Shown: piece by piece, positions 5,253 through 64,000 of the stretch
Position numbering within the stretch: position 1 is the stretch's first letter
Layout of the letters: the number at the start of each line of letters is the position of its first letter
NCBI GenBank assembly: GCA_025766275.1
Contig: JAFKAC010000052.1
Coordinates: forward strand, 342,843 to 406,842
Direction: 5' to 3'
DNA length: 64,000 bases
Source of the DNA: Lactarius indigo
Taxonomy: Eukaryota > Basidiomycota > Agaricomycetes > Russulales > Russulaceae
The notes under the pieces: model-generated
Told to the model about the DNA's origin: nothing
The model's input: the letters and a program-made list of their open reading frames with translations, nothing else
Databases searched by the model: none
Translations under genes and position numbers: made by a program

Positions 5253-5367
5253 AGACGCGACTAGATCTATCTTGGTACATCTTAACGTTCTACATTTTTC
5301 TTTGTTTACTAGTTCACGCTACAAATATGCTACCGCTACTCTGAACATGTTATGACACGTATTACAG

Positions 5368-5452
5368 TAGAACACGAAAAACTGATTGACTCGTGACCGC
5401 GAATCAGTCTGAACTGCGGATGCCGGGTCGTTCCGTGACAAACATACTGGAC
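5368..5452 (+). repeat. Short dispersed repeat with imperfect hairpin, copy 1
   Basis: An ~80-base motif starting ACACGAAAAACTGATTGAC and running to CCGGGTCGTTCCGTGACA occurs at 5368-5452, 7889-7960 and 11369-11447. It contains ACTGATT and AATCAGT as 7-base arms around a ~14-base loop. The first two copies follow MBOAT genes, but the third stands alone 1.3 kb beyond the array, so it is not just part of the MBOAT duplication. It could be a very small mobile element or the remains of a fourth unit. Confidence 0.6.
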
Positions 5453-5479
5453 TGATTACATGGGTGAGACTAGTGTTGC

Positions 5480-5840
5480 TGCAAGCCAATGCAGGCCAAT
5501 CCAAGTTGGTAACTTGGTTTCAACTTGCAAGTTCGGGGCTTCTATGCCATTGTTTCCGCAGCCAATGGAAACGATGGAAACAATGCAATTTTTGACTTCT
5601 CACGGTAAAACTTCTCACGGAAAACAAGACGGACATCATCACGTGCATTTGATAGTTATCAGGAAATTATTTAATTATTATTATTGATAGATATGTCCCG
5701 ATACGGGTTGAAGCGTATAGGAAAGTTTCTTCCGATGACTTGCAAGTTGCACTAGTGTGTAACCCGGCGATGCAAGTTACTTTAAGTTCCATAAATTCTG
5801 AGTCAAGTTCAAGTCACACCAGTCAACTTAAACTTGTGGT
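5480..5840 (+). repeat. CAAGTT/AACTTG-rich element, forward copy
   Basis: A ~360 bp noncoding element full of CAAGTT and AACTTG words and palindromic ACTTGCAAGT cores lies in spacer 1. The same sequence, diverged, is present in spacer 2 (about 8000-8379) as its reverse complement; shared words include AGATATGTCCC, CATCACGTGCAT, GAAAGTTTCTTCCGA and GCAGCCAATGGAAACGATG. No coding capacity is seen. Candidates are a MITE-like or other non-autonomous element, or a segment flipped by recombination. Confidence 0.65.
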
Positions 5841-6274
5841 ATCATTAGGTGAGACGACCGCGACCTTGACCACGACAGCAAGCACGACAGTCTTTGCCCA
5901 AAAGATCTCACGACTAGGACCGCTTTTACCGTGTCTCCGCCACTCAGATTTCAACTCCGCTCTTCATTCTCAATTACTTAAAAGACGAACTTCCGGCCGG
6001 TCCGAGCGGTCCGGGATATGAGAAGCGCGTTTGGAACACAACTTACATTTGATGATCCATATTATCTCTATGTTGGCTCCTGATGTTGTCTAACGTGGAC
6101 CTGGCCCTACACTGGGACCATCTGGTTATTCTTATGGCCACGAAATTTCTCCCACATTGGGGCTATGTGGGCAGAATATTACAATTCAACGATCGAAGCC
6201 ACATGGCCGCCATGAGGCCCTACAGCTTATTCAACCCGCGTGCAGTCGCGGTGTGGGGACGGGATTAAACTAGG

Positions 6275-6473
6275 CTAGTTCAACGAACCTAATAAACAGC
6301 CAATCAGCAAAGTCCTGCTTACATCCAATCCCCCACCAACTCTGGACACCGCACACCAGCGAAAAGCCTGTTCAACCGTCTGGCCAAGGCTACACAACAC
6401 TGCTGACTACAACATAACTATCCTCACATATCTTTCAATCCTTTCACGAGGAAAGCCGAAATCTCCATCCCCA
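6275..6473 (+). promoter_or_regulatory. Conserved 5' leader/promoter block of MBOAT copy 2
   Basis: This block matches the leader of copies 1 and 3. A further upstream block, 6060-6275, with words such as GGTTATTCTTATGGCCACGA and GCAGTCGCGGTGTGGGGACG, is shared only with copy 3 (8385-8590). Confidence 0.5.
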
Positions 6474-7766
6474 ATGGATCAACCACATGCATACATACCT
6501 AGCACAAACCATCGTAAAGAACTTACGCCGGCTGATATCGCTCCCGTCATTTTATGCTATTATGCACATGCCGTAATGGCCATGCTCCCTGGCACGTTTT
6601 GGCTCCGCATTGCTTTGCTCCCGGTCACAGAGTGGCTGGTGTGGAACTCGGCCGTAACACTTGATCTTGCCCAGTATTTTGCAAGCATCTTTGGGCTCCC
6701 GAATGCCCTGCGTATCAGTTTTGTCAACATTATATTCGTGGTGAGTGTCTTCCGCCCGTCGGGATTGTATTCGTGTCTAAAGACCGCTGATCAGCTTGCT
6801 CTGTGGGCCATAGGACTCAGGTGTTTCGAGTGGACATTCATCATCGATAAACCTCTCAGACGCTATGAGTTACCTTTGGATTTCGAGAAAAAGACACGCA
6901 AGGAACGACCGTTGACCGTCGCCAACATCCTCGTTGATGGAGCCGACCTCCTGTTCAATTTCCGTGGCCTCGGCTGGGCCTGGTCGTTCGAGCCTTTCTA
7001 CGTAGATCCCAACCCGCCATTGTCGATCCCCCACCAGTTTTTCAAACTCCTGGTCAAGATCGCCTCGCTCGATGCCGCCCACTACGTTGCAACGCTCATC
7101 ATTCCTACCGCTTACCGCCTCGAGGGCGACACCATCTTCGATCATACACTCGATCCACTCCCTCACTCCCTCCATGTGCTGTCCATCTCTATCTGCATAC
7201 AGGTCCTCATATACTCTTCCGTCGACATCATGTACCAGTTCTGCGCGCTGACGGGCCAGATCGTGTTCGGGCAATCGTTGACCCAGTGGCCCCGCATTGC
7301 GAATCGTCCGTGGTTGGCCATGTCCGTCACCGAGTTCTGGGGCAAGCGCTGGCACCAGTTTTTCCGGCATCTATTCGCCGTGTTTGGCGCATGGCCCGGC
7401 AAAATGGTCGCGGGGTGGTATGGCTCCGTGATGGGCGCGTACATCATCTCTGCCAACATGCACATCGTGATGCTCTGGGGCCTCGGGCGCGGCACGGAAT
7501 GGATATACACGGGCGGGTTTTTCATCATGCTTGGGATCGCCACCATCGGCGAGCGCAAATGGAAAGAGTGGACGGGCAAGCCGGTGACGGGCTTCTTTGG
7601 TACGCTCTGGACTGTGTTTTTGCACCTGGCGTTGGGATCGGGGATGGTGGACGCGTTTGTGCGTCGTGGGATGGTCGCGAATGACTTTGTTCCGAAGCAG
7701 ATGCGGATCGGGAAGTTCATCGTTGATAGCATTCTGACGATCGTGGGGAGGGTCAGGGCTGGTTAG
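6474..7766 (+). CDS. Wax-synthase-like membrane O-acyltransferase (MBOAT), copy 2
   Basis: Exons 6474-6740 and 6795-7766 match copy 1 base for base in exon length (267 and 972) and encode 412 residues. The intron is 54 bases, with GTGAGT, a CTAAAG branch region and CAG. Because 54 is a multiple of three and contains no stop, the unspliced message also stays open and would encode a 430-residue form. Splicing is still the better reading, because copy 1 cannot be translated without it. Family motifs FWGKRWHQFFRH and SANMHIVMLWGLG are intact and membrane spans are conserved. The role is as for copy 1: acyl transfer to an unknown alcohol in an internal membrane. Differences from copy 1 are scattered substitutions, so the copies have had time to diverge while remaining open. 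Confidence 0.85.
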   Translation: MDQPHAYIPSTNHRKELTPADIAPVILCYYAHAVMAMLPGTFWLRIALLPVTEWLVWNSAVTLDLAQYFASIFGLPNALRISFVNIIFVVSVFRPSGLYSCLKTADQLALWAIGLRCFEWTFIIDKPLRRYELPLDFEKKTRKERPLTVANILVDGADLLFNFRGLGWAWSFEPFYVDPNPPLSIPHQFFKLLVKIASLDAAHYVATLIIPTAYRLEGDTIFDHTLDPLPHSLHVLSISICIQVLIYSSVDIMYQFCALTGQIVFGQSLTQWPRIANRPWLAMSVTEFWGKRWHQFFRHLFAVFGAWPGKMVAGWYGSVMGAYIISANMHIVMLWGLGRGTEWIYTGGFFIMLGIATIGERKWKEWTGKPVTGFFGTLWTVFLHLALGSGMVDAFVRRGMVANDFVPKQMRIGKFIVDSILTIVGRVRAG

Positions 7767-8589
7767 AGACGCGACTACATACTACATCTATCTTGGTACA
7801 TCTTAACGTTCTACATCCTTCTTTGTTTACTAGTTCACGCTACAAGCACGCTACCGCTACTCTGAACATGTTATGACACGTATTACAGTAGAACACGAAA
7901 AACTGATTGACCTCGTGACCGCGAATCAGAACGGACCGGGTCGTTCCGTGGCAGACATACTGTAAGGACCGTTTACATGGGTGAGATATAGTGTTTTCGC
8001 AAGTTCAAGTCGACACTGGTATAGCCTGAACTTGACTTGGAAATTATGGAACTTGTAGGAACTTACACTGCCCAAGTTACACACCGGGTGCGACTTGCAA
8101 GCCGTCGGAAGAAACTTTCCCACACCGTTTTGGGACATATCTATCTTTAATAATAATTAGATACATGTCTGATAACTATCTATGCACGTGATGGTATTTG
8201 TCGTGTTTGCCGTGGGAAGTTTTATCGTTAGAAGTCACATTTGCATTGTTTGCATCGTTTCCATTGGCTGCGGTAACAGGGGCCTAGAAGCCCCGAACTT
8301 GCAAGTTACACCGGTGTCAGTTTGACGGCGCAAGTTGAAACCAAGTCACCAACTTGGATTGGCCTGGATTGGCCTGCGGTGACATTAATATGGGCTCCTG
8401 ATGCAGTCTAATGTGGACCTGACCCCTACACTGGGACTATCTGGTTATTCTTATGGCCACGAGCTTGCTCCAACATTGGAAATATGTGGGAAGAATATTC
8501 CATTGATCGGAGCCTCATGGCAGCCATGAACCCTTACAGCTGAGTCAACCATGCAGTCGCGGTGTGGGGACGGGGTTAAGCTGGGCCAG
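7767..8589. other. Spacer between MBOAT copies 2 and 3
   Basis: The spacer has the same 3' flank as copy 1, the short hairpin repeat at 7889-7960, the reversed CAAGTT-rich element at about 8000-8379, and the upstream block shared with copy 2 (8385-8590). TACAGTA/TACTGTA motifs lie at 7884 and 7958. No coding exon is evident. Confidence 0.6.
8000..8379 (-). repeat. CAAGTT/AACTTG-rich element, reversed copy
   Basis: This is the reverse complement of the element at 5480-5840, about 380 bases long, with many substitutions and short indels. The flanks on both sides (CATGGGTGAGA before, GGCTCCTGATG after) are in the same orientation in both spacers, so only the element itself is flipped. Confidence 0.65.
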
Positions 8590-8783
8590 TTCAACGAACC
8601 CAATAAAGCCCAACCAACATAGTCCTGCTCACACCCAATCCCCCACCCACTCTAGACACCACACACCAGCAAAAGGCCTATTCAACCGTCTGGCCTTGGC
8701 TACACAACACTGCTGACTACAACCTAACTATCCCCACATATCTTTCAGTCCTTTCACAACGAAGACCGATATCTCCATCCCCA
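8590..8783 (+). promoter_or_regulatory. Conserved 5' leader/promoter block of MBOAT copy 3
   Basis: This matches the leaders of copies 1 and 2 up to the CATCCCCAATG start context. Confidence 0.5.
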
Positions 8784-10076
8784 ATGAATCAACTATACGC
8801 ATACATACCTAGCACAAACCATCGTAAAGAACTTACGCCGGCTGACCTCGCCCCCATCATCTTTTGTTACTATGCACACGCCGTAATGGCCATGCTCCCT
8901 GGCACGTTTTGGCTCCGCATTGCTTTGCTCCCGGTCACAGAGTGGCTGGTGTGGAGCTCGGTCGTAACACTTGATATTTCCCAGTATTTTGCAAGCATCT
9001 TTGGGCTTTCGAACGCCCTGCGTATCAGTTTTCTCAACGTTATATTCGTGGTGAGTATCTTCCGCCTGTCGGGATTGTATTCGTGTCTAAAGTCCGCGGA
9101 TCAGCTTCTTCTGTGGGCCGTAGGACTCAGATGTTTCGAGTGGACATTCATCATCGATAAGCCTCTCAGGCGATACGAGTTGCCTTTGGATTTCGAGAGA
9201 AAGACACGCAAGGAACGACCGTTGACCGTCGCCAATATCCTCGTTGATGGAGCCGACCTCCTGTTCAACTTCCGCGGCCTCGGCTGGGCCTGGTCATCCG
9301 ACCCTTTCTACGTAGACCCTAACCCCCCATTGTCGATCCCCCACCAGTTTTTCAAACTCCTGGTCAAGGTCGCCTCGCTTGACGCTGCACACTACGTTGC
9401 GACGCTTATCATCCCGACCGCTTACCGCCTCGAGGGCGACACCATCTTCGATCATACACTCGATCTGCTCCCATACACCCTCCGTGTGCTGTCCATTTCG
9501 GTCTGCACCCAGCTCATCATCTACTCTTCCGTCGACATCATATACCTGTCCTGCGCGCTGACGGGCCAGATCGTGTTCGGGCAATCGTTGACCCAGTGGC
9601 CCCGCATCGCGAATCGCCCGTGGTTGGCCATGTCCGTGACCGAGTTCTGGGGCAAGCGCTGGCACCAGTTCTTCCGGCATACCTTCGTCGTGTTTGGCGC
9701 GCGGCCCGGCAAGAAGGTCGCGGGGTGGTACGGGTCCGTCATGGGCGCGTACATCATCTCTGCCAACATGCACGTCTTGATGCTCTGGGGCCTCGGGCGC
9801 GGCACGGAATGGATCCACGCGGGCGGGTTTTTCATCATGCTTGGGATCGCCACCATCGGCGAGCGCAAGTGGGAAGAGTGGACGGGCAAGCCGGTGACGG
9901 GCTTCTTTGGGACGCTCTGGACGGCGTTTTTGCACCTGGCGTGGGGCTCGGGGATGGTGGACGCGTTTGTGCGTCATGGGATGGTCGCGAACGACTATGT
10001 TCCGAAGCAGATGCGGATTGGGAAGTTCGTCATCGACAGCTTTTTGACGATCGTGGCGAGGGTCAGGGCTGGTTAG
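8784..10076 (+). CDS. Wax-synthase-like membrane O-acyltransferase (MBOAT), copy 3
   Basis: Exons 8784-9050 and 9105-10076 encode 412 residues and keep the exon lengths of the other copies. The 54-base intron is again stop-free and in frame, so retention would add 18 residues without truncating the protein. FWGKRWHQFFRH and SANMH are present. Some hydrophobic positions differ from copies 1 and 2, for instance in the span near residues 245-265, where IYSSVDIIYLSCAL replaces IYSSVDIMYQFCAL. Such changes could alter substrate choice, but that is only inference. Start-to-start spacing of the array is 2516 and 2310 bases. This copy is not followed by the CAAGTT-rich element. Confidence 0.85.
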   Translation: MNQLYAYIPSTNHRKELTPADLAPIIFCYYAHAVMAMLPGTFWLRIALLPVTEWLVWSSVVTLDISQYFASIFGLSNALRISFLNVIFVVSIFRLSGLYSCLKSADQLLLWAVGLRCFEWTFIIDKPLRRYELPLDFERKTRKERPLTVANILVDGADLLFNFRGLGWAWSSDPFYVDPNPPLSIPHQFFKLLVKVASLDAAHYVATLIIPTAYRLEGDTIFDHTLDLLPYTLRVLSISVCTQLIIYSSVDIIYLSCALTGQIVFGQSLTQWPRIANRPWLAMSVTEFWGKRWHQFFRHTFVVFGARPGKKVAGWYGSVMGAYIISANMHVLMLWGLGRGTEWIHAGGFFIMLGIATIGERKWEEWTGKPVTGFFGTLWTAFLHLAWGSGMVDAFVRHGMVANDYVPKQMRIGKFVIDSFLTIVARVRAG

Positions 10077-49092: not shown

Positions 49093-49974
49093 ATGTCCTC
49101 ACAAATGCACCCATCTTCTTCCCCCAACTTCTCTCAGCGTAACTCTGGGAGCGGTGGATTGCCCCCTCTTCCCCATATCAGGGACAGGCGATTGCAGACG
49201 CAGATTTTCACGCATCGCAGTTTGGCCAGGAGGCCCAAGCGTTCCTTTGAGGATTCGCCCGACGACCCGAGCCCCGACAACGAACAGTGGGTCTATTGAT
49301 ATTCTCTCTGCGAAAGACGACACTCACCTTGATTCCGCGGAAGATTGGTACACATTGGGGATCCAGTGTTTAGCCTTGTGGTGACCGACTTGATTAGAGA
49401 CCTATTCCCAAATCTAAGCGTCGGCCCTTCTTCCGTTCGTTTGATTGGCCTCTTATTCGCCGCCCTTGGTCCCTGAATATGACCCTTTAGAAAGTGAGGG
49501 ATCGCCTGAAACAAACCGCCACGCTTGCTAGAGTGTACGACGCTTCCTTGATCGCGCCCCCACCGCCCACTGACGCTTCCCTTTCTAGCGCGGTCTTGTA
49601 CCGTTTGCACGATCACCTCCTAGTCCAAGCTGCTCAAGCCAACGAAGTCAAGGCGTCACAGAACGCACAAGGTTAGTCACCATTCACGACGTAAGACCCA
49701 CATGCCTGTTTCTGACTTGCCGTTTTTTTTCCAAAGCTGAGGTATTCAAGGTACCGTATCGCTGTCGTTCCTTGATATAGAAGTACAGAATAACACTAGT
49801 CCACAGGCTTATGTCGGAGGACTCTACAGAGAACAGGGCATGGGTCCCGTCAACGACTGGCTCCGCTCGCTTTTCCAGCTGTACGTCCTAGACGCGTACG
49901 AGAACATACGGAGGGAACATCTTCTGCCGCCTGTGCAGACTCCACATGCGCCGACGCTTCGGTCCGTATCGTAA
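49093..49974 (+). CDS. RNase III-like protein R1, predicted catalytically inactive
   Basis: Six exons (49093-49286, 49344-49434, 49491-49534, 49589-49671, 49737-49750, 49807-49974) give 197 residues with introns of 54-65 bases. The frame is open to a TAA at 49972. After a Ser-rich start, IRDRRLQTQIFTHRSL and the split signature DNEQ/LVHIGD identify an RNase III domain. VGPSSKVRDRLKQTATLARV, HDHLLVQAA and AEVFK/AYVGGLYREQG follow in family order. No dsRNA-binding domain is present. In active enzymes the signature is NExLEFLGD and the second site D-x-x-E. Here the second Glu of the signature is Val, the Asp of DxxE is Glu, and the final Glu is Lys. The protein therefore probably binds RNA or a partner without cutting; dead RNase III folds are known in mitochondrial ribosomes (mL44, mL57). 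Exon 5 has 14 bases. Confidence 0.75.
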
Positions 49975-51699
49975 CACGGCCCAAACCGAAATAGCCACTG
50001 GGCAAAGAATAACGTGTAAGCACCACGCTCCCGTACCTATCATCTCAATTATACGTCCACAATCTGAATCTAAATGTCCAGATATACGAGCTCGGGAATG
50101 TGTTGGACACTGCTGATCAGCTGCGGAGTTGGGGAAGCGTCATCAGATGAGGAAACTGAACCCCAACTATTTGTTGTGTACGATTACCTGCTAGATTGTG
50201 TGGTCGTTGTCCGATACAATGACTACTAAATTGCGAAATTATATCGATTTTGTCAAGTCGTGCAATTCGCGGTATTGGTTTCTGTGCACTCGCTTCCGGC
50301 GCAAGGGCGCGCACGAATAGCCACGTCCATCTGCGTCTTCCTCGGAGGCGATGTCAGGTCTGTGATCCGTTGCAGCAGCGGTAGCAGTTGCTGCAAACCG
50401 CTATATAGAGCCACCGGGATGGCGAGGTCGCCAAGTGTTGGCGTCCCTTCTGCGATTAAAGTCCGAGGTGGCGAGAATGCTCCAGGTGAATCGCGTGTTT
50501 CTCTCAGAAATTTTCAAGAGCAAGTTGCGGGAGGGGAAATCAGGCACACGTAGGAGCAGCTTCGGGACCCGTGTAAGCGCTCCGCGTTGCGAGGGACAGG
50601 GAAAGGACCATTCCATTGGCCAGTTCGGGGCGCCACAGACGACTTCACCCATGCAAACAGAAAAGGCGACAGGGGATGTCCCCAAAGCGTCTGCATTATG
50701 ATGTCGACTAAGTTGGGGAACAGGGATTAATTCGGTACCGTGCGGAAGTCCAAATTCGACGAAGGGGCATGTGTCCTAGTTGGGAGGTGCTTTATCCTGA
50801 AAAGTACAGTACGTCTCCATTGGCTTAAAGAAATCAGTCTCAAACAAGTCGGCATTAAGTCTCGCTGTCGAATGTGACAGCAGGGCAATATAAGCCACTA
50901 GTTTATAGTTTTAATGACAGGTGCTCACCAAGTGCACGGAAGTGCTACCACCCTAATACTACCCTTCGACTTGCGGTTTCTAGAGTGGGCGAGGTCAGGA
51001 AAAACATAAAGGAGAATACTGCCACTAACCAAGTTCCGGTGTGTCAGAGATTCAGAGAAACATATCTTGAGTGAAAGGTCGCTATGGGCTATGGGGCATC
51101 GTGTCCATGTGTTGGGTCCACTCAAGTTGGGGTTGATGAATAAGCCGAGGAATCTGCGCTTTCCCTTTCTTTGGTAGTTGCTGCCAACTTGCTGGTTGCA
51201 TGCTAAACTTCAAGTTGGAGCTACTAGTAAGCTGCTAGGAGTTCGATTAACAAAACGTCGGCGGCCTCGAATACCAGCACGAGGTTAAAAAATCCTGATT
51301 GGTCGGGCAGTAGCGTCCCACTTTCGGTCTCACTGATAGCTGCTGATGGGAGTGACTGCCAGAAAGTGTACCAGTCATATCATAGATCGTTGACCTCGCT
51401 TACGCTATCAAAGAGCCCTGATTGGCTGAGAGTCACGTTTGAAATTTGAAATTTCAAAACTGGTGACATCGGACATCGCATCATTGGACGACAGACGTCG
51501 CTTGAGACGTCGAAAATAATTATGTCGAATGCACATCATATTGATCATGATATGCAACGTTGGCACTATTTTCATGAGTGAGTTATTCGGCTCAAATGTT
51601 CACTAACGTCAGTACGAACCCATCTGGGTTTATCCCTGATTGTGGACACCACGTCTGCATTGGTGCAAATCAAGGCTGAACCAAGCTTGGTCTATACAA
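49975..51699. other. Intergenic region with clustered small palindromes
   Basis: No gene recognised. Near 51438-51458 a 9-base inverted repeat (TTTGAAATT, loop TGA, AATTTCAAA) is followed within 110 bases by two GACGTC sites and a palindrome-like ATATTGATCATGATAT. TACAGTA lies at 50805. Confidence 0.45.
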
Positions 51700-52982
51700 C
51701 AAGCCCTACCGTATTTCGAGTTCAAACTCGAATTGGGTTGAGCCAGATGGCAGTTTGACGCCTTGGTTTGACGTATTGACTTTGACTTTGACGGTCTTGC
51801 TGATAGACGCATAACCAAGCGCATAATGCCATCTTAGGATAAATAAGGACCCTAGGTCTTGGACAATGGTGCAATAAAGTATTGGATGAAGTCGGCCAAT
51901 ATCTTCCTTCTAGAGCCTGAGAGAAGAGGGAGGTATGTGAGAAAGCCATGACACTTGCCCAAAACTTATTTGTCGCATTTGATTGAATTTGATCAACCGA
52001 ACTTTATTCAAATTTGTTATATTGGTTCGGTTCTCACGGCAATTTTGGGCCGAACCTGCTCGGTCAAGTTCAAAATTTTGTTGTAGTCATGCTCTTGTCA
52101 GCGACTTCGTGTTTATCCGTCTCAAAGCAACATTATACCAAATCTTTTCAAACCAATGTCTAGGTCATGGGGGCACACAACCGAACCGTACCATTTCTAA
52201 GTCACCATGCGCAGCACATCAACACGTATGGTGACGAAATATGGAAGGTATGTCAGCGCGCGACTTTATCATATCAATCGAAAGGAACATCTTGATGAGG
52301 TCACGATCACCTGTCAACGCTGTCAACACCGGACCCATGTTCTAAGGCCGGAGAGCTCAAACCACTGCGAGCTAGTAAGCCCTTACTCATCCTAAGCTCC
52401 TTTCGGAATCTGGAACTAAAGGGATATGGAGTGTACTGGAGTGGTTGACAATCAACGCGATTGGCCGGTTTAGTTCCCCCGGCCCACGTGGGGATTTGTA
52501 GCCAATGAAAATCATTGCCACGGCGGGGCAAATGTGGACAGGGCAGAACGAACGACTCGGCGGAAATGGTCTAATGACCTCACCGGTTACTCGGGGACTC
52601 ATTAGGTCGAGAAAGTCAGACGCCGTAAACTCACAACGCCCGCACTCAGTTCAGTCATTGTGCTCTTCATCCCTCTCTATATCCTCGCAGGTCTGGCAGC
52701 GATTTGGTGACCTCCAATTCGTGTCCGACAATTACCGCCAATACCGGTGACTTGTAAATCCTTTGGGGTCCTCTTCCACGCCGTCACGACCTAACCAGGC
52801 GTGTAGGATTTTGATAGATGAGGTGCCCCTTCTTTCCGAGGATTTCTGGTAGCACTGTAGCTATTTGTGAGTTGATCTAACCATGACGTGTTCCAGAAGC
52901 TTGAAACGCTTGAAACGCATGGCACGGGGCTTCCCCCCTGCCGCATCGTTGTGCTCCTATTCTCATTCTCTACCACCTTGTC
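51700..52982 (+). repeat. Segmental duplication, copy 1 (upstream of R2)
   Basis: This segment and 57850-59173 are diverged copies in the same orientation. Shared words include AACTCGAATTGGGTTGAGCC (near 51726 and 57871), CACCTGTCAA, AAGGCCGGA, CTAAGCTCCTTTCGGAAT or its close variant, ACCGGTGACTTGTAA, and TTCCAGAAGCT just before the RNase III-like genes. The stretch contains no convincing gene and probably carries the promoters of R2 and R3. Confidence 0.65.
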
Positions 52983-54250
52983 ATGTCATTGTCAAACGAA
53001 GAGCTTACCCGTCCCAGTTCCTCCCCCACTCACCTCACTGTAACCAAAATGCTCCCCCTCCTTCCAAGAATATGGTCGACTCAGCGTTTGAAGCAAATAT
53101 TCACCCACAGCAGCATGAGCGCGAGACCCCGGAGTGGGTTCGAGTTCGAGGCGCCTCACGCTGATCCAATGTACGATAACGAAGGGCAGGTCCTCCTCCC
53201 CCCTCCGTCGTCAGTCGACTAACTTCTCTGGAAGATTGGCGCACATCGGAGATGGAGTACTCAGTCTGGCGGTTACCGATCTTATTCAAGGCCGTTATCC
53301 ACGCTTGCACGTCGGTCCAACGTCGGTTCGTTGAAGTGTCGCCGTTCGCATCGTCTTCATTTCCTTATCGTGGGCTGTTCAGAAAATGCGGGACCGCATC
53401 AAGTGTGGTGGGACACTCGCAAGAATGTAATATGTCTCCTTCCTAATGTCAATTGAGCAGTGCTGACACGTGTGCTTCCAGCACCGTACAGTATGGGCTT
53501 CATGAAAGGCTGAGGGGTGAAAATCCTCGTCTTAAGAATGAGCAGAGAGTGCAAGGTATGGCCACCATGCATTTCGTGCCCTCTCTCGTCGTCCTTAATT
53601 TGTCTTCCTGTATAAAGTGAATGTCTTCAAGGTACTTCTCTTCTGCGCTTTTATGATCTGTAAATATTTTTTGAAATCGATTACAGGCCTACGTGGGTGG
53701 ACTGTTCAAGGAACAAGGCATCGATGTCGTCAAGAAGTGGCTGAACCAGCTGTTTGAACCCCTCGTCGATGCTGCATACTGGGCTGAGCGCCAGCACTAT
53801 CTGGAGCACGCAGTACCAGCGACACCCTCTCCCACACCTTCCCCGCCCCCTCCGCCTCAACGGATAGCACCTGTTCCGAGCCTTCCGGGACGGGCTGCGG
53901 AGGGCCTGAAGCAAGCTGAGGTCAAGGGGCAAGGGAGATCGGAGGCAACGAAAGCCAGAAATAGACCTACGCAACGTCAAAGCCTCGCAGCAGCGGGAAC
54001 CTCTCTGGGAGCGATAGATAGGCCTGGCGGTCAACACACGCAGCGAGGAATAGGCTCACGAGATGGCAGAAGAAGGGACGCAGGTGAGTACGACGGGACA
54101 TCGTCGTGGTGGTCCCCGCGGTGGGTGAGCGCAGCCCGAATATCACGACCTGACGCTCTCTGGTCGTATTATCAGAACCCGACTCTTCGTACACCGGTCG
54201 ACATTCTGGTGCGTTGCCTCGACGACGCTCGCCGTCAACTGCAGAGATGA
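52983..54250 (+). pseudogene. RNase III-like pseudogene R2 with long C-terminal frame
   Basis: Exon-like pieces match R1 and R3: 52983-~53199, 53235-53325, 53383-53426, 53482-53556, 53618-53631 and 53687-54250. Motifs are IFTHSSM, LAHIGDGVLSLAVTDLI, KMRDRIKCGG, YGLHERLRG, VNVFK and AYVGGLFKEQG. Two lesions are visible. The first exon ends at GGGCAG/GTCCTC in a phase that does not fit exon 2, unlike R1 and R3. Exon 4 is 75 bases rather than 74 because of an extra A in a run of five, which puts a TAA a few codons on. The last exon stays open for 187 codons with a Pro-rich, then Arg/Gln-rich tail that R1 and R3 lack. As in the others, the catalytic Glu is Lys, and here the paired Asp is Asn. Confidence 0.65.
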
Positions 54251-56698
54251 CCGAGAGGGGTGCGAGGAAGCGGTTGAGGTCGAGGTAGGGCGATATTAGG
54301 TTGGTTGTCAGTGCTGCATCTGCCCCTTTCATCTGATCTGGATCCTCACCGGCTTAAACGCAGGAATCGCTGCGAAATTTGCTGCGAAAGTCCTCGGACT
54401 ACGAAGGGACGCACGAAGGAGGGAAAGATGCCGAGAGTGGAGGGGGTATGTACCACGTCCGATTTCACCTACTATTTATACAAATAGGAAAAACAAAGAG
54501 AGAGAGACCAAGCCCAGGTGGTACTCAACTTGGGGGTTGGGGGCGTCCTTGTATTTGATATGCTTCATCCCTTTCTAGGACTTGCTTCTCCGAGTACTAC
54601 AACACCACGATATTGCCAGGCGCTGGTGTGCAGCTCCCACTAGGATATATTAATGACGTTGTTCCGACCCTGACAGCATCCGTATTCATTTCCCTTATCG
54701 TGTGGGACCGTAACTCAGATTCTTCTTAAGTTAGCTCCGAGTCTTGTGTGAATGAGAAATTAGAAGAATGTGAGGCAAAACGCCACTGGATAAAAAAAAT
54801 GCAGAAGTAACTTACACAGGAACTTAACTTACAGCACATTCAAGTTGGTGAGAGAGGCCGCGTGCTACTGTTTCCCGAACACTGCCCCGCGGCAGCCGAT
54901 GTTAGTTGGTTGTGGGTGTATTGTTTGGTGTATCGACGAAGGCAAGTGATTGTGATTTGACGTAATGTTGATATCATATACGTTGATACTCCGAGGCGTG
55001 TTGATCTACCACTGTCCCGATCTATCAACTGTAATAACACCGTGATATCATAGATGGTACGGTTTTTTTTTTCTCTGGGGTCAAACGATACCCAGGATTT
55101 TCATTCACAAGTGGCATGTTAGCACCCACGGCATCGTCCGGGGGACGAATCATTGGACAGTAGCTTGGCACCTGGTGATATGGCAATCAAGGTCACGGCA
55201 GTAGCAATGCAGGCCATGGTGTTTATTTTCCACATCTTCACACGACACGGCTGGGGGTGTTGGAGCGGAGAGAAGGTATGTAATCCCAGTAGTGTCACAT
55301 CGAAGGGACATGGGACCAGTGTGCTGCTGGACATAGTTTCTCACTCGAAGTTGGGAGTAATCCGTGGGTCATTGTTCTGCTCCGAGGCTCTGAGAGCATC
55401 ACCAATTTGAATGCGACCCCGTTTCGGGTCTACCAGGCTTCATGCTAAACAACCCCAGTCCCGATGCAGGTTTAAGCGGTACTAGTACCGGCTTGTGTTG
55501 GAAGCCCCTCGGCTCACACTAAATCACATCGCTGCCACGCATCTGTCTCCTCTTGACTTGCCCTTATATCACTTTGGTGAGATCCCCTTCTACACGTGCA
55601 CAGGGTAATTGCTCCGCACCTTAACGCTCAGTTTGACTGATTTTTGTGATACCATCAAGATCTCTGATGCTCGTGCAGTCACCCCACTTCCTTGCTTGGC
55701 TGCCGTTGATGTTGCAGTCTCTACGTGTCTTTATTTTTTCTTTTGCACGGCACTATTTCATGTGCGGTAAACTCTATGGCGGCATACTATTGGGGATCTG
55801 GGGGCAAACGAACGAGCCGATCTATCGTCCTGATAATAAAAATATACACAAGTTTGTACAGATGCGGACTTTACGCCGATTGGTAAGCCACGTTGATATT
55901 GCGATATCTGTTTATTGTACACGCCAAGGTGGCTAGATATATCACACGGCTCAAATCAAGTGCGCAAGATATAATACGATGGCCTGATCAAAAGTTACGG
56001 AGTAGAAACGTCGAGGTTCCGGCTTCGCAGCAATCGACCTGGTCGCATGTTGACACAGTCACGTACAACTGCGTCGTCGACTGTGACTCAGAGAAGATCG
56101 ACCATGCTCCCTCTTGCTAGTGTCCCACTGGTATGAGGGAATGAACCCTCGATTCGAGTTGAATGGGAGCGATACAATGTAATGGTTATGTAATGTAATC
56201 TGGGTAATCGTCAAAAGAAGCCGTCTCGTCGCTATCCGAAGCCCTATTTGTGTCTTCTGCATGATTCGATCATCCGCCGCATATTGCTCGACAACCGAAC
56301 CGACGTTGGCCAAAGCTGCGAGGCATTTCCGGATACCTTGCCTTCCTTAAAATCTGCTGAGGGCTTGATTTTCCATGGATACCTCTCCCAGGATGTTTAC
56401 CTTCTAGTCTCTTCGTGGTGACACAGCAGATGGTACAGACTCAGTTGACAAGAAACACTGTGGCTCCGCAGTTGCGAACGTGGGCCCACCCAAGATTTGG
56501 ACCTGGCATTGGATGTCAACGTTGTCATCCTCCCCAACGGGGTATGTGATATTGGAGTACGCCCCGTGTTTCCTTGACGCACAAGCCCGCGATGTCGGAA
56601 TGTCAAGCACGCAAGGTACGTGTCATTTGCCATGCAACACTCACCACGTCGGTGGTACCGCACTGCACGCTGTTGCCCTTCGATGCAGGATCAAAGAA
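54251..56698. other. Intergenic region of the RNase III-like block
   Basis: The first ~200 bases match the 3' flank of R3 (60235-60430). No gene was recognised in the rest. Confidence 0.45.
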
Positions 56699-56832
56699 AA
56701 GCCCTTGTACATGAAGGTCTCTATCGAGAGTCGGGAATGAACCCATCAGCGAACATTCCGCTCGACTTCCCAGTTCCACATGTATGGCACATACGAGAAC
56801 ATACGCAACGGACATCTTCTGCCGCCCGTGTA
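56699..56832 (+). pseudogene. Fragment of an R1-like RNase III last exon
   Basis: About 130 bases align with exon 6 of R1 (49807-49935). GTCTCTATCGAGAGTCGGG corresponds to the R1 stretch around LYREQG, and ACGAGAACATACGC with CATCTTCTGCCGCC corresponds to YENIRREHLLPP. The frame ends in TAA right after HLLPPV. The earlier exons are not recognisable upstream, so this is a relic. Confidence 0.6.
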
Positions 56833-57204
56833 ACCTCTCCTCCATCGATCGCATCGAACAAGCGCGTAGGATAGGTCATACATGGATGCCACGTCCACTG
56901 GCACTCGTGGTGTATTGGAATGTCTGCGGTAGTAGCAGCGATACCCTGCGACCAGCCATTGGGGATTGCTGCGGAGGCCACACCTTTGAACTATTGACCA
57001 AGGTTTGCCACGATCTGGAGGTTCTCTTACCACCAGACTCCTCGAAACCTAACCTGTTGGTTTTAGCAACAGACCACCAGTGGGAGCTTGGAAGGGCCAA
57101 ACAGGCGCTAGCATGAACGGCTCCGGGACGTGCGCGCGTGCTTGACGTCGCAAGGGATTGGATGAGGTAATGTTATGATATTCTCGTTATCTCGCTCGGA
57201 AGCG
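56833..57204. other. Short region with one gene-like frame
   Basis: A plus-strand frame ending at 57116 finishes with a coding-like segment (LLTKVCHDLEVLLPPDSSKP). It has no recognisable family and may be a fragment. Confidence 0.3.
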
Positions 57205-57717
57205 CTATACAAGAGTTCTCCTACACGCACTCACTGGGAGAAGAGAAGGAAGATGGCCCCAAAATACCTGCATGCCGACCACAGAAGGAAGGACGATGAT
57301 CTTGCGCCCCAAGGATAGGCAGGCGTCGAACGGGTGTCCATAGTTTGGGACGCGTCTCTTCCAAAAATGTGACCTTTTTGATTTTCCGAGACTAGTCCTG
57401 AATGAGATGACATCGAAGCCTACTGTCAAACATATTTGAGGGTAATCAGCCATAGGCTTATAGCCTCCATAACAGCGGGCACTGGGATTTACAGAGCACA
57501 TTAGGCCAGGCAAATGGGTATGAGAAAGACAGAAGAGATCACCCATATCGCCAAATTCTCTGGGGAGATATCCATGAGTGAAAATATTCTGTCCATCCAC
57601 GCATTCAAGTGGGCCAGCAACATTGACAATACAGTCGGGCTGACCCAACGACGACAATAATTCACTCGGCTCGAGTGTCGACAGCTTCGATGATTGCGAG
57701 ACACGTATGGGCGCCAT
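57205..57717 (-). CDS. Hypothetical protein
   Basis: A 170-residue open frame starts at the ATG at 57717 (MAPIRVSQSSKL). Its composition looks coding (DCIVNVAGPLECVDGQN; FCLSHTHLPGLMCSVNP; GGYKPMADYPQICLTVGFDV), with several Cys. There is no recognised family, signal peptide or membrane span. It lies just left of the segmental duplication copy at 57850. It could be an exon of a longer gene or a chance frame. Confidence 0.3.
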   Translation of the reverse strand: MAPIRVSQSSKLSTLEPSELLSSLGQPDCIVNVAGPLECVDGQNIFTHGYLPREFGDMGDLFCLSHTHLPGLMCSVNPSARCYGGYKPMADYPQICLTVGFDVISFRTSLGKSKRSHFWKRRVPNYGHPFDACLSLGRKIIVLPSVVGMQVFWGHLPSLLPVSACRRTLV

Positions 57718-57849
57718 TTCCTCGCTTGGCCAAATTATTCGGCTTGGACGTTCAATCAAGCATCAATATCATCCTATCAGAGCTATCTCCATTATGCAGA
57801 TGCTCCATCTTCAAACAGAGAAACGCACATGGCCCCACAAGTGGCCCCA

Positions 57850-59173
57850 CAGTATTGTATTTCGAATTTAAACTCGAATTGGGTTGAGCCGGGTGGCGGT
57901 TCGATTTGCTACCAATGAGCGATCCGCCCACAACCGTGGTCCTCTGGGAAGCGCCACCCGCCACCTCACCCTGAGTTTATCCTATGCCACAGTAATAAAC
58001 GGGTCTAGGCCTTGGGAAATGGAATAACCAATAACTTCCTTCTAAGTTATACCCCAACGTACCCATAACATCACTTAATATAACCTGTCATAAAGTAGTC
58101 CGGTCGATCGACGTCGTTCTTTTTTTGACGTTTCTTTTGATACTGACGGGAAGTCCGGTCCGGTACTCGTAAGTGTACCAACTTCTTTACCGCCCACTAG
58201 TTCTGTCAGTGACGTGTTCTTGTCAGTGCTATAGCACTACTTCGTCCTGTTGTGTCAATCTCAGAGTGACGTTCTACAAAGTCCTCTTGTAAAGCTGGAT
58301 CGGTCCTGAACGTGCGTACCCATGACTGTACTATTTTGAAGGTACTACACGAATAGTGCGTCCGAGTCGTCGGTGTCAGGTATGGAGCCTGGACATGGAA
58401 GATGTCAAAACTTGAAGTACGTCAAGTAACTTACGCACAATTCCACAATATCGTTAATTGTTGATCGATAGAAGTCAACCTTCTGAAGACGCTGCGAACA
58501 CCTGTCAATACTAAAGGCCGGACGGTTCGAATCACTGCTCGCTAAGTTCTCCCGTCCTAGGCTCCTTTCGGAATATGGGCCCACATCATTATGCTGTATG
58601 CGGAAGCGTACCGGACTAAGTACCGGACGAGGTGTTATAATAATGACTGATTCGGTTATTCAGTTGGGATCTCACGTGAAAGCGTATAGGCCAATACAGT
58701 AACAGGATCGCCTCCCCAAAACAGCGGCTGGGCCAAAAACCTGAAGGAGGAACTCAGAGCGTGTAATTGTATGTCCGCACTGGCGGCCTGATGAAAACGT
58801 GAAGCAATGCAGAGGCCATGAAGTCGTAGATCCGAGATTCATTATGCCTGCAGGCACTTAGATCACTGGCTGTTAGCCGGCCCTCTTGATATCCTCGGGA
58901 CAAATGTCTAACAACTTATACTATAGTACCGGTGACTTGTAAGTCATTTTGGCACCCTCTTCCATGCTGTCAATTAATCGACGGTGTGACTATGCCTTAG
59001 ATAGGTGAAAATGGGCCTTGCTGCTGTCGAAGATATCTGATGGTCGGTAGCTATTTATTAGTAAGTGGATCTAACCCTGGTCGGGCGTTTTCCAGAAGCT
59101 CTGGACGCAAGAGAGTGTCCTTTATTCCGTGTCCCTTTATTGCGCCGCCCCTACCCTCACTCACCACTTTTCC
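57850..59173 (+). repeat. Segmental duplication, copy 2 (upstream of R3)
   Basis: This is the partner of 51700-52982. Copies differ by many substitutions and indels, so the duplication is not recent. Confidence 0.65.
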
Positions 59174-60077
59174 ATGCCACCACTATCCACGGCAGAGCAC
59201 TCCCCTACTCCTTCTTCCTCCTCTATCCACCCAGTTGTTGTAACTAACACACTACCGCTCCTTCCGAAAATACAGTCAGTACAAATTCAGGAGCGAATAT
59301 TCACCCACAGTAGTCTAACCGCGAGGCGCCGGGGTGAGTTCGAAGCGCCTCGAGATAATCCAAGCCGCGATAATGAAGAGTGTGTTTGCCGTTCCGCTTC
59401 TTTCATCAATCCGATCGATTGAATTACCTGTGAGATTGGCACACATCGGGGACCAGGTAGTTAGCCTGGCTGTTACGGATCTCATCCAAGGCCACTATCC
59501 TCGTTTGCGTGTTGGTCCCACCTCCGTCCGTCGCCACATCATCCTTTCCATTGTCTCTATGTTCTCACCACTGACGAGCCAGAAATTGCGAGATCGCATC
59601 AAGTGTGGTGACGCCCTCGCGGCAATGTATGTGTTTATCTTTTGGCCAGTTAAGCAGTACTAACGTATCTGTGTTCCAAGTGCCGTGCAGTATGGTCTTC
59701 ATGAAAGTCTAAGAATCCAAGCTCCCAATCTCAAAGCTTCTCAGAGCGTGCAAGGTATGGCCACTGTGCATATCGTTGCCTCTTACATAACGCTTAACCT
59801 CTCGTCCTATCCAAAGTGGATGTGTTCAAGGTACCTGCCTTCTCGAGGTTTTCGATACCATGTGGGGATCTTCTGAAGACTAGTACAGGCATACGTAGGT
59901 GGGCTATTCAGGGAACAGGGCATGGATGTCGTCAAGCAATGGCTCGATCCGCTCTTTGGACCCCTCTTAGACGTTGCGTACCAGGATGAGCGCCGGGACC
60001 ACCTCGTAGCCGGGCCTGTTTCACCAGAAACTACCTCTCGCACGCCTAACAGTGGGCGCAAAACGGCGAAGAGCTAG
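59174..60077 (+). CDS. RNase III-like protein R3, predicted catalytically inactive
   Basis: Six exons (59174-59379, 59435-59525, 59583-59626, 59681-59754, 59817-59830, 59889-60077) encode 205 residues with no lesion. Exons 2, 3 and 5 have exactly the lengths seen in R1 (91, 44, 14). The ATG at 59174 is the first in frame. Motifs in order are IFTHSSLTARR, the signature DNEE/LAHIGDQVVSLAVTDLI, VGPTSKLRDRIKCGDALAA, YGLHESLR, VDVFK/AYVGGLFREQGMDVV and a short basic tail ending RKTAKS. The second Glu of NExLEFLGD is Ala and the last Glu of DxxE is Lys; the first Asp of that pair is kept. It is a single RNase III domain without a dsRNA-binding domain. Intact splice signals and frame, despite an altered active site, suggest a selected non-catalytic role. 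It could instead be a recent copy not yet broken. Confidence 0.72.
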
Positions 60078-61002
60078 CCTGAAAGACGGTGGAGAAGCAG
60101 GTAAGACATTGTCATAATGATACTCCTGTATACGCATGGTGCGGATATTTCGACCTGACACTTTGTCTTGCTACTACTAGATGCACCCGACTCTGGGTCT
60201 ACGAATAGGCCCGCTAGCGTATCGCCTCGACGACGCTCGCCGGAGACTGCGGGTTGACTGAGAGGGGCAAGAAGAAGCGGCGTCGGTCGAGATAGGGTGG
60301 AAGGGGTGCGATGTCAAATATGACAGTACCGGATCTGCACCTTCAAGTTCCGTCTTAGTGACCGGGTTTAAACGCAGGAGGAGCGAGGAGAAGGACTCGA
60401 AAGTAGCGAAGAGACACACGAAGAATGGAAAGGCGATGGAGAATAAAAGAATTGTAGTTTAGTTCAGTCTGTAATCATATAAATAAGGAACCCATTCGCT
60501 GGTGTGCTTGCTTTCAGGGTTGACTTGATTAGCACCACCCCCTGACACTGCGTGTATTGTTTCAGGGTCGGACTAGTTGTTCACGGGGGCTTTTACGAAC
60601 GCGCACTGCCTTCGGTTCTTCTGCTAGCAGCACCTGCGTCCTCGTGGTATGATCGCTGGTGCTTGAGCTCTTGCGGCGCCGCCCAGTTGGACACTGCCCC
60701 CAGTATACTTGAATTGGCATCGCGGGACGCACATCGCTGCGGAACTTGTAAATATGGTCCATAGCGCGATAAATCTTCGCAAATGAATTGAAGAAACGTG
60801 GAAACCTGCACATCCATGGTTCGGTCGCTATCGTGTCAATACTCTGGCACGGTCTGCATGGAGTACAATGTCGCTGGGGTCACACACCTGTACACACTTT
60901 GGTGCACAGGTTCCAAATGCTCTAGCGAGGCCCTGCGGTTGCAGTCGTACACCGTGCGGGCTTCTGAGGTACGCGCGTTTATGGTACCGCCGCTATGAAC
61001 TT
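59988..61002 (+). repeat. Direct duplication, copy 1 (R3 3' end plus downstream kilobase)
   Basis: From the last exon of R3 (GAGCGCCGGGACCACCTCGT) through about 1 kb downstream, the sequence recurs at 62928-64000. Shared landmarks are GCAAAACGGCGAAGAGCTAG, CGTCGCCTCGACGACGCTCGCC or near variants, GTTGACTTGATT, GTTCACGGGGGCTTTTACGA, CACTGCCCCCAGTA and GTGGGCTTCTGAGGTACG. Copies are diverged with small indels. Inside, a minus-strand frame at 60562-60760 (MDHIYKFRSDVRPAMP) has a coding-like look but no family. Confidence 0.75.
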
Positions 61003-62927
61003 CGGCGGGAAAGTCGTCTTTGCTGGCTAGTTTCCTAGGGTGTACGAAACGACAAGTATGGTTACGAAGGTTGGTGCCCTACGACGCTTCGCACTCAGCG
61101 CTGCTTACTTTGGCGGAGAAAGCGAGCGCATGTAATAAGACGAGCAACGCGACGTGGTTCCGTGACATAGGCGTGGCGCGGAGGGAATGCGCAGCACCTT
61201 GGTCCGTGGGGAACGCGCCGAATCGAGCCCGGGGTTCCCCTGGCGCGAGGCTTATATAATGTTCATCTCCGTGACAGGCGGCGGATGCGATACGAGCCAG
61301 AGGAAGGTAGACGGGAGGAGATCGGACCCTGGACAGAGATTAAACGAGGTGATTGTGTTTGAGGCGGTGAAGAAGACGTTTAAGAGGGAGCCAGCGAAAG
61401 AGGAGCAGTAAGAAGGACGTCAGTGGCACGTCACGGTATGCGATGCTCGGGACAATGGGAACATGCAATGAAACCCAGTAGCATGATAGATGAGATCGAG
61501 TAGGCAGCCCTGCCACATCCTGTCGAACCGCTGTAGTAAGTACTTCAACTATCTCAACTCGCGAGGCAATGTCCTAGGCTTCTAGCGAGGTCAGAGTAGA
61601 CTCCTCGGTCTCCGCGCTCGAAAGTTCTGGAAACAAGCCGAGCAGTGCAAGAAGCAGCGCGGCGCACATAGATGCCAGAGTCGCGGTGGTGCGAGCCCTG
61701 GTGACTCTGAACAGCCGGAACTGTGGGACCATGACCGTGAGCTTCGTGTTGCCATCTAGCAAAATGAAACTCATGATGGTCATCTACAGTACTAGCAATC
61801 GCTTCGCTGTCCACTGGTACCGAATATACCTCCCGAAACGGCCGACGTTTCTGAGGACTCGAAGCACCACTTAACCGGGATTACTGTGCCTTGACTTGGC
61901 CACTACTAGTAGTACCGGACTGTAAAACCTTGTTTGGAATTGTTGTTAGTCACGGTATTGTTATTTTTGTTCACTTTGATCCTTGCTTCGACCTTTTGAC
62001 ACACAATGTGCACTGGCAGTCCGTGATGCAAAATCGTAATCTTATCTCGCACTGTATGTTTCCAAAATTTCTCGGGTGGCACATTGATATCCCCGAAATG
62101 TGCCATGCTTAGTGCCATCACTGCTATGCTCATTTTCAAATGCGCTATCACTCGCTCGATTTCTCCTTTGAAGCCCATCCAGATACACTATCGGATAAGA
62201 GTAGGTTTATCTCCTTCCAAGGTTTATCTCCTTCCAATCACTGCTAGATTTTGTCTTCCACCAAGGGACGCGGCTGAAGTGATCAACATCTTCATACAAG
62301 CGCGCATCGCAAAGTCGAGGCCGTAAGCCAGATTAAATGAAGGTACCCCGAGCTTCTCAATAATGTATGGTCTGCATCCGGCGCGGGGAAAACGTGCCTA
62401 CCTACATCTCACCAACTGCTAGCAGCCAGCCACCAGGACAAGCCGTATACCAGAAAGCCCAGAGGAGCCAATTCGTACAGGCAGCCTGACGGGGGCAGGA
62501 CCGATATCTTTGTTTAGCTGCTCAGAACCGACGCCTTGCAAATCGGCATCAAGGAGGCAATGGGTTTGGCGCCACGAGGCAGAACTTCAAAGCGGGAGAA
62601 TAAGAAAACGTGGGCCGTGTGAGGATGACGATGGACGAGGTAAGTTACCGCACAGCCGTGCAACCCGAGTCAGAGGTAGCGAATCGTTCATATGCGTGGG
62701 AAGTAGCAGGTGAGGACGAAGAGCGGGAGCAAGCGGGGCAATCCATTTGCGATAAGAGATATATAATAGGCTTTGGTGCGGCGCAAAGCGAACAAACGTT
62801 TGATGGAATGTGGTAGTGTGGCGACTTAGGTAACGCGATTCCATATGCACAACCGCTACTTCTTCATATATATATGGACGTGTCGTTCTGAAATCAGATG
62901 GTGCACACAAAGGCAAGGCAAAAGAAG
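61003..62927. other. Spacer between the two direct-duplication copies
   Basis: No gene recognised. A minus-strand frame at 61574-61783 ends in a hydrophobic stretch (ASMCAALLLALLGLFPEL) and could be a membrane-protein exon, but has no partner exons. A 17-base unit GGTTTATCTCCTTCCAA is repeated head to tail at 62204-62237. TACAGTA lies at 61785. Confidence 0.4.
62204..62237. repeat. Perfect 17-base tandem duplication
   Basis: GGTTTATCTCCTTCCAA occurs twice in a row. This is typical of replication slippage or of a small duplication left at a break. Confidence 0.9.
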
Positions 62928-64000
62928 GCTGAGCGCCGAGACAACCTCGTGGCCGGGCCTACTGCATCGGCAACTACCCCCCACAAGCCTAACAACGAGC
63001 GCAAACGGCGAAGAGCTAGCTTGTAAGATGGTGGAAGTGGAGATGCAGGTAAGACATCGTCACAATGACGCGCGCATGTGCGCATGGTGCGAATGTTTCT
63101 ACCTGACGCTTTGTCTCGCTAGTACTAGATGCACCCGGGCCGACTCTGGGTCCACTGATAGGCCTACTAGTGCGTCGCCTCGACGACACTCGCCGGCAAC
63201 TGCGGGGTTGGCCGAGAGGGGCACGAGGAAACGACGTCGGTCGGGATAGGCTGGCGGGGTCTGATACCAAAGATATGGCAGTACCTCGTCTGCACCTTCA
63301 GGACCCGTCCTAGTCTGAACACCCTCACCGCGACTTGATTTAAATGCAGGAGCAAGGGGAAGGATCCGAAAGTAAAGAAGAGACACACGCAGAACGAAGA
63401 GGTGATGAGGACAAATAGAATCGTAGCTTAATTCTGTCTGTGATTATATAAATATCAAAAAAAAAGAAAAACTCTGGTCGCCAGTATACTCACTAGTACT
63501 TTCGGGGTTGACTTGATTGGCACCTGTCCTCCTGACACGGCGTGTGCATTGTTGCAGGGTTCGTACTACAGCAGTTGTTCACGGAGGCTTTTACGAAGGT
63601 GCACTTCCTTTGGTTCTTCCACTAGCTCAGCAGCATCTGCGCCTCAGTGATACGATCGCTAGTGCTTGAGTTTTTGCGGCGGCGTCGATTGCGAGTTGGG
63701 CACTGCCCCCAGTAGACTTGAATTGGCGTTGCGACGCACCTCGTTTCTGTACTTGTGAAAGCGGTCTATGGCGCGAGAAATGCATTGTCAGAACGTGAAA
63801 GCCTGCACATTCATGGTTCGCTCGCCATCGAGTCAATGCTCTGGCACAGTCTGCATGTAGTACGCTGCCGTTGTGATCACATTGCAACACCTGTGCATGT
63901 TTGCACACAAGTTCAAAACACTCTAGAAAGGCCCTGAAATTGTGGTCGTACACTATGTGGGCTTCTGAGGTACGTGCGTTGATAGTACTGTCGCCAGAAC
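62928..64000 (+). pseudogene. R4: 3' fragment of an R3-like gene plus downstream flank
   Basis: The homology with R3 begins abruptly inside the last exon (GCTGAGCGCCGAGACAACCTCGTG) and runs through the stop-codon region GCGAAGAGCTAG near 63006-63017 and the downstream kilobase to the window end. No upstream RNase III exons are found at 62300-62900, so the unit was copied without its 5' part or lost it. The copy may continue beyond the window. Confidence 0.7.

What the first reader, a model, noticed from the sequence alone, without database searches (positions are those of the whole stretch)
49093..64000. Block of single-domain RNase III-like genes that keep the fold but lose the active site
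Two intact genes (R1, R3), one pseudogene (R2) and two 3' fragments (56.7 kb, 62.9 kb) share a six-exon plan. Seen directly: in all three readable copies the signature Glu (NExLEFLGD) is Val or Ala and the last Glu of the second metal site (DxxE) is Lys. In characterised RNase III enzymes (for example the Aquifex enzyme: E40, D44, D107, E110) these residues hold the catalytic metal. The same two losses in every copy while splice sites and frames survive in R1 and R3 suggest a family selected for binding rather than cutting. One speculative role is a decoy or regulator of RNA silencing; another is a ribosome-associated factor like mL44 or mL57.
Basis: partly seen in the sequence, partly recalled or inferred. 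Interest (0 to 1): 0.85.

Follow-up and report, generated by a model that had tools for sequence, protein, structure and literature searches.

The report
Mushroom RNase III genes that cannot cut
Milk-cap and brittlegill mushrooms carry extra copies of an RNA-cutting enzyme whose cutting site is lost, including a change that in a bacterial enzyme leaves RNA binding but stops cutting, so these genes probably regulate RNA rather than cut it.

Summary
The window is the end of a contig of the mushroom Lactarius indigo. The active-site losses are real. R1, R2 and R3 are all intact through the RNase III domain (R2 is not a pseudogene). They belong to a family seen in 20 named Russulaceae species. In 41 family rows the metal ligand E40 is kept in 0, E110 is Lys in 40 and Gln in 1, and D44 is kept in 38. 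The same genome holds an RNase III with a complete site plus dsRBD sequence; it shares the five intron positions, including a 14-nt micro-exon that codes D107 and E110. The copies lack the dsRBD, form one clade (100/98), and were already two lineages before Lactarius and Russula split. They are constrained (allelic dN/dS 0.08-0.23 over the domain regions). Some transcript-sized environmental contigs carry uninterrupted spliced-looking copies. By tree, sequence matches and gene structure they are not mitoribosomal mL44. E110K is the E. coli rnc70 (E117K) change, which binds dsRNA without cutting. Best reading: non-cutting RNase III regulators that bind dsRNA and/or pair with active RNase III. 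The biochemical role is inferred, not shown.

The parts
49093..49974 (+). R1: short-type RNase III-like gene, 197 aa, exons 49093-49286, 49344-49434, 49491-49534, 49589-49671, 49737-49750, 49807-49974; E40->V, D44 kept, D107->E, E110->K; no long tail, no dsRBD
   Evidence: copy on C244 differs at 2 of 197 residues
49737..49750 (+). R1 14-nt micro-exon holding the positions of D107 and E110 (here E and K)
   Evidence: a 14-nt exon at the same place in the intact-site gene on C1
52983..54250 (+). R2: long-type gene, exons 52983-53185, 53235-53325, 53383-53426, 53482-53555, 53618-53631, 53687 onward; GC-AG first intron; E40->A, D44 kept, D107->N, E110->K; annotated tail ends RKRLRSR. The end given is the stop of the open frame; the annotated model (P0017) splices further in the tail
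   Evidence: the C244 copy is open through the same frame
59174..60077 (+). R3: long-type gene, exons 59174-59379, 59435-59525, 59583-59626, 59681-59754, 59817-59830, 59889-60077; E40->A, D44 and D107 kept, E110->K; window copy ends early in the tail by a frame difference absent from two other assembled copies
   Evidence: public annotation P0001
59817..59830 (+). R3 14-nt micro-exon with D107 kept and E110->K
56757..56837 (+). R1-like 3' fragment (78% over 73 bases; 73% over 81 bases)
62926..63597 (+). R3-like 3' fragment: tail exons plus 3' flank, 82% over 611 aligned bases

Best explanation
R1-R3 are members of a Russulaceae family of RNase III pseudoenzymes that are paralogues of the RNase III-plus-dsRBD gene of these fungi. 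SHOWN from sequence: same intron positions as the intact-site gene in this genome, no dsRBD, loss of E40, E110 replaced by Lys, D44 mostly kept, purifying selection on the domain, presence in 20 named species of four genera, an early split into a short form (R1 type) and a long form with a mostly basic tail (R2/R3 type). INFERRED: they fold and dimerise as RNase III domains, cannot hold the catalytic metals, and act by occupying dsRNA and/or pairing with the active RNase III, in the way the E. coli rnc70 (E117K) protein binds without cutting and is dominant over wild type. The long forms may work in the nucleus, judged only from Arg/Lys-rich tail motifs. When the duplication happened is unresolved beyond 'before Lactarius and Russula split'.
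Against: No biochemistry, and no RNA data for L. indigo itself. rnc70 keeps its dsRBD while these proteins lack one, so dsRNA affinity may be low. E40 is lost as well as E110, so the rnc70 parallel is partial. The family evolves faster than the intact-site gene: Lactarius-Russula identity 68% (R1 type) and 58.5-58.9% (R3 type, three pairs) against 86-91%. The R2 tail has allelic dN/dS 0.956 and whole R2 0.476. 8 of 34 long-type rows have no Arg/Lys cluster in the tail, one being the frame-shifted window R3. The dimer interface was not examined. The Pfam mL44 model matches 25 of 31 members weakly.
Confidence: 0.6

Rival explanations
1. Non-catalytic heterodimer partner: each R protein pairs with the active RNase III (C1 gene) and turns a two-strand cutter into a one-strand nicker or restricts its substrates, as the trypanosome KREPB6-8 proteins are held to do with KREN1-3.
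For: An active-site-complete paralogue is in the same genome; 34 domain columns hold the same residue at 90% or more in both groups; precedent in PMC9508840 (passages).
Against: No test of dimerisation was possible and no partner is shown. Copy number differs between loci and species in the lists seen.
Confidence: 0.3
2. Mitoribosomal proteins of the mL44/mL57 kind.
Against: R1 (26.8) and R2 (18.5) are under the PF22935 cut-off, and PF00636 and PF14622 score higher in all three. No mitoribosomal chain at E<=1 for R3, P0061 or the family profile. The genome's mL44 is another gene, on C270 (matches solved mL44 chains at E 7.5e-5), and it lies outside the branch of the R family plus intact-site RNase III (96/85; its own branch is very long, 5.41). 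Intron positions are those of the intact-site RNase III.
Confidence: 0.03
3. Decaying duplicates without function, kept by chance and recent duplication.
For: Two 3' fragments in the block; fast evolution; unconstrained R2 tail; many fragment or truncated models in the lists.
Against: dN/dS well under 1 over the domain at three loci and their alleles; the same Lys in 40 of 41 rows across four genera; the six-exon plan with a 14-nt micro-exon kept in three genes and their alleles; spliced-looking environmental copies.
Confidence: 0.07

Closest known systems
Agaricomycete RNase III with dsRBD (Rnt1/Dcr1-like by PDB matches; L. indigo gene on C1; P0153, P0157, P0165 in Russulaceae)
   Same: RNase III domain, 49-52% identity over 151-154 columns, same intron positions in L. 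indigo
   Different: That gene keeps E40, D44, D107, E110 and a dsRBD; the R genes lost E40, E110 and the dsRBD
E. coli rnc70 (E117K) and Aquifex E110K (PDB 1rc7)
   Same: Same Glu-to-Lys change at the second metal site; rnc70 binds dsRNA without cutting (PMC8708148, PMC3621894, passages)
   Different: Laboratory mutants of a dsRBD enzyme whose other site residues are intact; here fixed in a natural family without dsRBD and without E40
KREPB6-8 and other non-catalytic RNase III proteins of trypanosome editosomes
   Same: Paralogues of an active RNase III that lack key catalytic residues (PMC9508840, passages)
   Different: Zinc finger and RAM present there, none seen here; mitochondrial; no partner shown here
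mL44 / mL57 mitoribosomal proteins
   Same: RNase III fold; inactivity recalled
   Different: Sequence matches, tree and intron plan point to Rnt1-type RNase III
Maize RNC1
   Same: Catalytically inactive RNase III domains in a named plant protein (PMC8708148 passage)
   Different: Two domains, chloroplast

Membership tests
RNase III enzyme (nuclease domain + dsRBD) | RNase III domain | tested here: met
RNase III enzyme (nuclease domain + dsRBD) | Four acidic metal-site residues E40, D44, D107, E110 | tested here: not met
   E40 0 of 41, E110 0 of 41 family rows
RNase III enzyme (nuclease domain + dsRBD) | C-terminal dsRBD | tested here: not met
   no PF00035 in R1, R2, R3 at E<=1 or in 31 family members at E<=0.1
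mL44 mitoribosomal protein | PF22935 over cut-off as best family | tested here: not met
   R3 28.2 bits (cut-off 27), R1 26.8, R2 18.5; PF00636 and PF14622 score higher in all three
mL44 mitoribosomal protein | groups with mL44 rather than with RNase III | tested here: not met
   C270 mL44 lies outside R family + intact RNase III, 96/85 (one mL44 row with a long branch); PDB matches
rnc70-like bind-but-not-cut protein (analogy) | Glu110/117 to Lys | tested here: met
   40 of 41 rows
rnc70-like bind-but-not-cut protein (analogy) | dsRNA binding without cleavage | not testable with these tools
   needs purified protein
KREPB-like non-catalytic partner (analogy) | stable dimer with a catalytic RNase III | not testable with these tools
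   only single chains can be modelled here
KREPB-like non-catalytic partner (analogy) | catalytic paralogue encoded in the same genome | tested here: met
   complete site on C1; activity itself not tested

The most novel reading that the evidence does not exclude
One lineage of ectomycorrhizal mushrooms has fixed, in nature, the laboratory 'bind but do not cut' RNase III change and expanded it into a gene cluster of two ancient types, a short domain-only form and a nuclear long form. These act as dominant regulators of dsRNA processing (own RNase III, Dicers, or mycoviral dsRNA), a regulator class that my searches did not find described in fungi.
Probability: 0.3. Interest if true: 0.78.

Novelty: new variant of a known kind. 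Interest (0 to 1): 0.62.

Why it matters
Inactive RNase III relatives are known in kinetoplastid editosomes, mitoribosomes and chloroplasts. A constrained and clustered set across a fungal family, paralogous to an Rnt1-like gene in the same genome, gives a tractable case: one of the two fixed losses is a residue change with a known biochemical effect in bacteria. It makes testable whether cells evolve competitive inhibitors of their own dsRNA processing.

Tried and rejected
mL44 origin: rejected on tree, PDB matches and intron positions, although a Pfam mL44 model matches most members weakly. R2 as pseudogene: rejected. Other acidic residues taking over the metal site: two columns became more acidic in the family (R3 position 103, D in 39 of 41 against A or S; position 84, D in 40 of 41 against mixed). 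Neighbouring genes as a clue: 20 of the 52 open frames of 140 aa or more were scanned; they gave a Tnp2 transposase, three MBOAT_2 genes and an F-box gene, nothing from RNA silencing. No Rfam match in 40-64 kb. Placement of the family next to two Hymenochaetales rows: 97/83, but only 68/83 once the right columns were removed and open, so it is not used; equally the trees do not show the Russulaceae intact-site gene as its sister. meant to remove four site columns but removed a neighbour of E40 by an index slip; one search repeats it correctly and gives the same family support. Literature: 0 papers in the held library have both 'Russula' and 'RNase III', and 0 both 'Lactarius' and 'ribonuclease III', as whole words. 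Broader searches listed nothing on this family (20 of 82 rows seen; 47: 20 of 944; 59: 12 of 1510; 60: 19 of 19). No listed row held the word E110K, so for Aquifex E110K only the PDB title was seen.

Full report
WHAT IT IS. The window is G000:C240:342843-406842, the last 64 kb of a 406,842-base contig. Database proteins on a contig of that length name the species Lactarius indigo. The assembly holds the block three times: C240, a near-identical second contig C153, and C244 at about 96-97% identity. There is also an R3 paralogue at about 85% on C227 with a counterpart on C283.

GENES. R1 (197 aa) and R3 (205 aa as written) splice over five introns of 54-65 bases with GT-AG ends. R2 splices the same way with a 49-base GC-AG first intron. 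That GC donor is the same in the three assembled copies, and public annotation has R2 as a 311-aa protein, so R2 is not a pseudogene. The R3 tail frame in C240 differs from C153 and C244 near window 60.06 kb; an assembly slip is likely but unproven.

ACTIVE SITE. Aquifex numbering is recalled and anchored on the signature motif. Family rows (41): E37 40, E40 0 (A 22, G 8, V 6, I 2, S 1, T 1, W 1), D44 38, D107 19 (N 11, E 7, Q 2, H 1, A 1), E110 0 (K 40, Q 1 in P0063). Intact-site rows (33): 33, 33, 33, 31, 31. The two intact-group exceptions at E110 are P0136 and P0160; the P0160 model lacks the micro-exon residues and P0136 was not examined further. The 41 rows leave out P0001 (same as R3) and other near-identical, truncated, mis-spliced or fragment models. 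In the wider count, several fragments without the micro-exon show Q at this column because they read into AYVGG by another route, P0024 shows I, and P0039 and others have a gap. Between the groups three columns are fixed differently at 90% or more: T->S, V->K and E110->K. Median net charge of the domain is +2 (family) against -1 (intact), with overlapping ranges.

RELATION TO THE ACTIVE ENZYME. L. indigo has an intact-site RNase III on C1 (nuclease part about 2155528-2156455) with dsRBD-like sequence downstream. Its internal exons are 91, 44, 83 and 14 bases; R1 has 91, 44, 83, 14 and R3 91, 44, 74, 14. The 14-base exon codes the residues that include D107 and E110. I found one such gene in this genome; the search scores only the best candidates. 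Similar full-length proteins are widespread in Agaricomycetes (250 matches, best 120 listed, 7994 candidates scored), among them Russula earlei, R. emetica and L. psammicola. In a tree of 80 rows and 151 columns without the four site columns, 41 family rows form one clade (100/98), split into R1 type (7 rows, 100/99) and long type (34 rows, 100/94). R1 type holds L. indigo R1 and R. earlei P0061, so the two types precede the Lactarius-Russula split. Which branch of the intact-site gene gave rise to the family is not resolved (68-70% bootstrap). In a smaller tree with the C270 mL44 and another divergent gene added, family support is 96/70 and mL44 stays outside (96/85).

SPREAD AND LINKAGE. Named species with members: eleven Lactarius, one Multifurca, one Lactifluus, seven Russula, one of them 'aff.'. 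This suggests that the cluster is old.

SELECTION. Nei-Gojobori dN/dS: R1 alleles 0.157 (4 synonymous, 2 non-synonymous, 197 codons), R2 domain 0.229 (5, 4), R2 tail 0.956 (5, 13), whole R2 0.476 (12, 18), R3 first 198 codons 0.080 (8, 2), C227/C283 0.230 (4, 3), R3 against C227 0.316, R3 against R2 0.156 with dS 1.15 near saturation. Pooled R1, R2 domain and R3: Fisher p 3e-6. The domain is constrained, but less than the intact-site gene: Lactarius-Russula identity 68% (R1 type) and 58.5-58.9% (R3 type) against 86-91%.

TRANSCRIPTION. No RNA-seq was available. By my count 37 family rows come only from environmental sets. I tested 14 that cover much of the domain on contigs of about 1-2.2 kb. 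Twelve of 14 contain both the first exon junction and the micro-exon junction (P0021 as VLKAYVGA, read by eye because the pattern missed it); P0040 and P0042 start later. P0043-P0051 (nine fragments) lack both, and 14 further fragments were not tested. The 14 were chosen for coverage, so this shows that such copies exist, not how common they are. Uninterrupted frames over six exons on short contigs look like cDNA; intronless copies are the alternative. P0058 is 90% identical to R1.

TAIL. Of 34 long-type rows, 26 have at least one Arg/Lys cluster after the domain, and several end in RKRxR. No localisation tool was run; nuclear targeting is a guess.

HOW IT WORKS. Two metal ligands are gone and a Lys sits in place of one, so two-metal cleavage should fail (inference from the RNase III mechanism). 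The E. coli E117K protein keeps dsRNA binding, does not cut and is dominant over wild type for lambda N mRNA (PMC8708148, passages and table row). It shifts reovirus dsRNA in gels without cutting (PMC3621894, passages). Trypanosome editosomes show a second route, non-catalytic partners of active RNase III (PMC9508840, passages). I commit to 'non-cutting RNase III that occupies dsRNA and/or the active enzyme' at 0.6, with the heterodimer version as leading rival at 0.3; the two overlap. Loss of the dsRBD weakens the dsRNA-only version.

NOVELTY. The kind (RNase III pseudoenzyme) is known. This domain-only, Lys110-fixed fungal family was not found in the held library under the searches.

Noticed in passing
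L038 (G000:C215:2546500-2549000) and L039 (C171:40000-42600); P0079-P0082: A second, separate pseudo-RNase III lineage: L. indigo has on C215 and C171 a gene grouping (100/99) with proteins of Amanita, Termitomyces and Tricholoma that have lost all four site residues (L. indigo: A, E, H, H) and in three of four of those proteins keep an annotated dsRBD. So inactive RNase III relatives arose at least twice in these mushrooms, or once very early.
   Followed up: partly
L029, C1 about 2156.6 kb: The dsRBD part of the intact-site RNase III changes frame once in this assembly; the L. psammicola orthologue P0157 has a dsRBD match. Assembly slip or real change not tested.
   Followed up: no
G000:C267, C271, C112, C1:2838879-2840375: Other RNase III domains of the genome, in pairs; they look like Dicers (recalled motif, not tested).
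   Followed up: no
window 4149-10076: Three neighbouring MBOAT_2 acyltransferase-like open frames.
   Followed up: no
window 169-1872: Tnp2-type transposase open frame.
   Followed up: no
window 60905-60993 and 63906-63994: Flank repeats (79%) suggest that the 62.9-kb fragment belongs to a duplication of about 3 kb that includes the R3 3' end and flank.
   Followed up: partly
G000:C153 (52 kb): Near-identical inverted copy of the block with scattered single-base differences, which looks like an assembly duplicate of the C240 end.
   Followed up: partly
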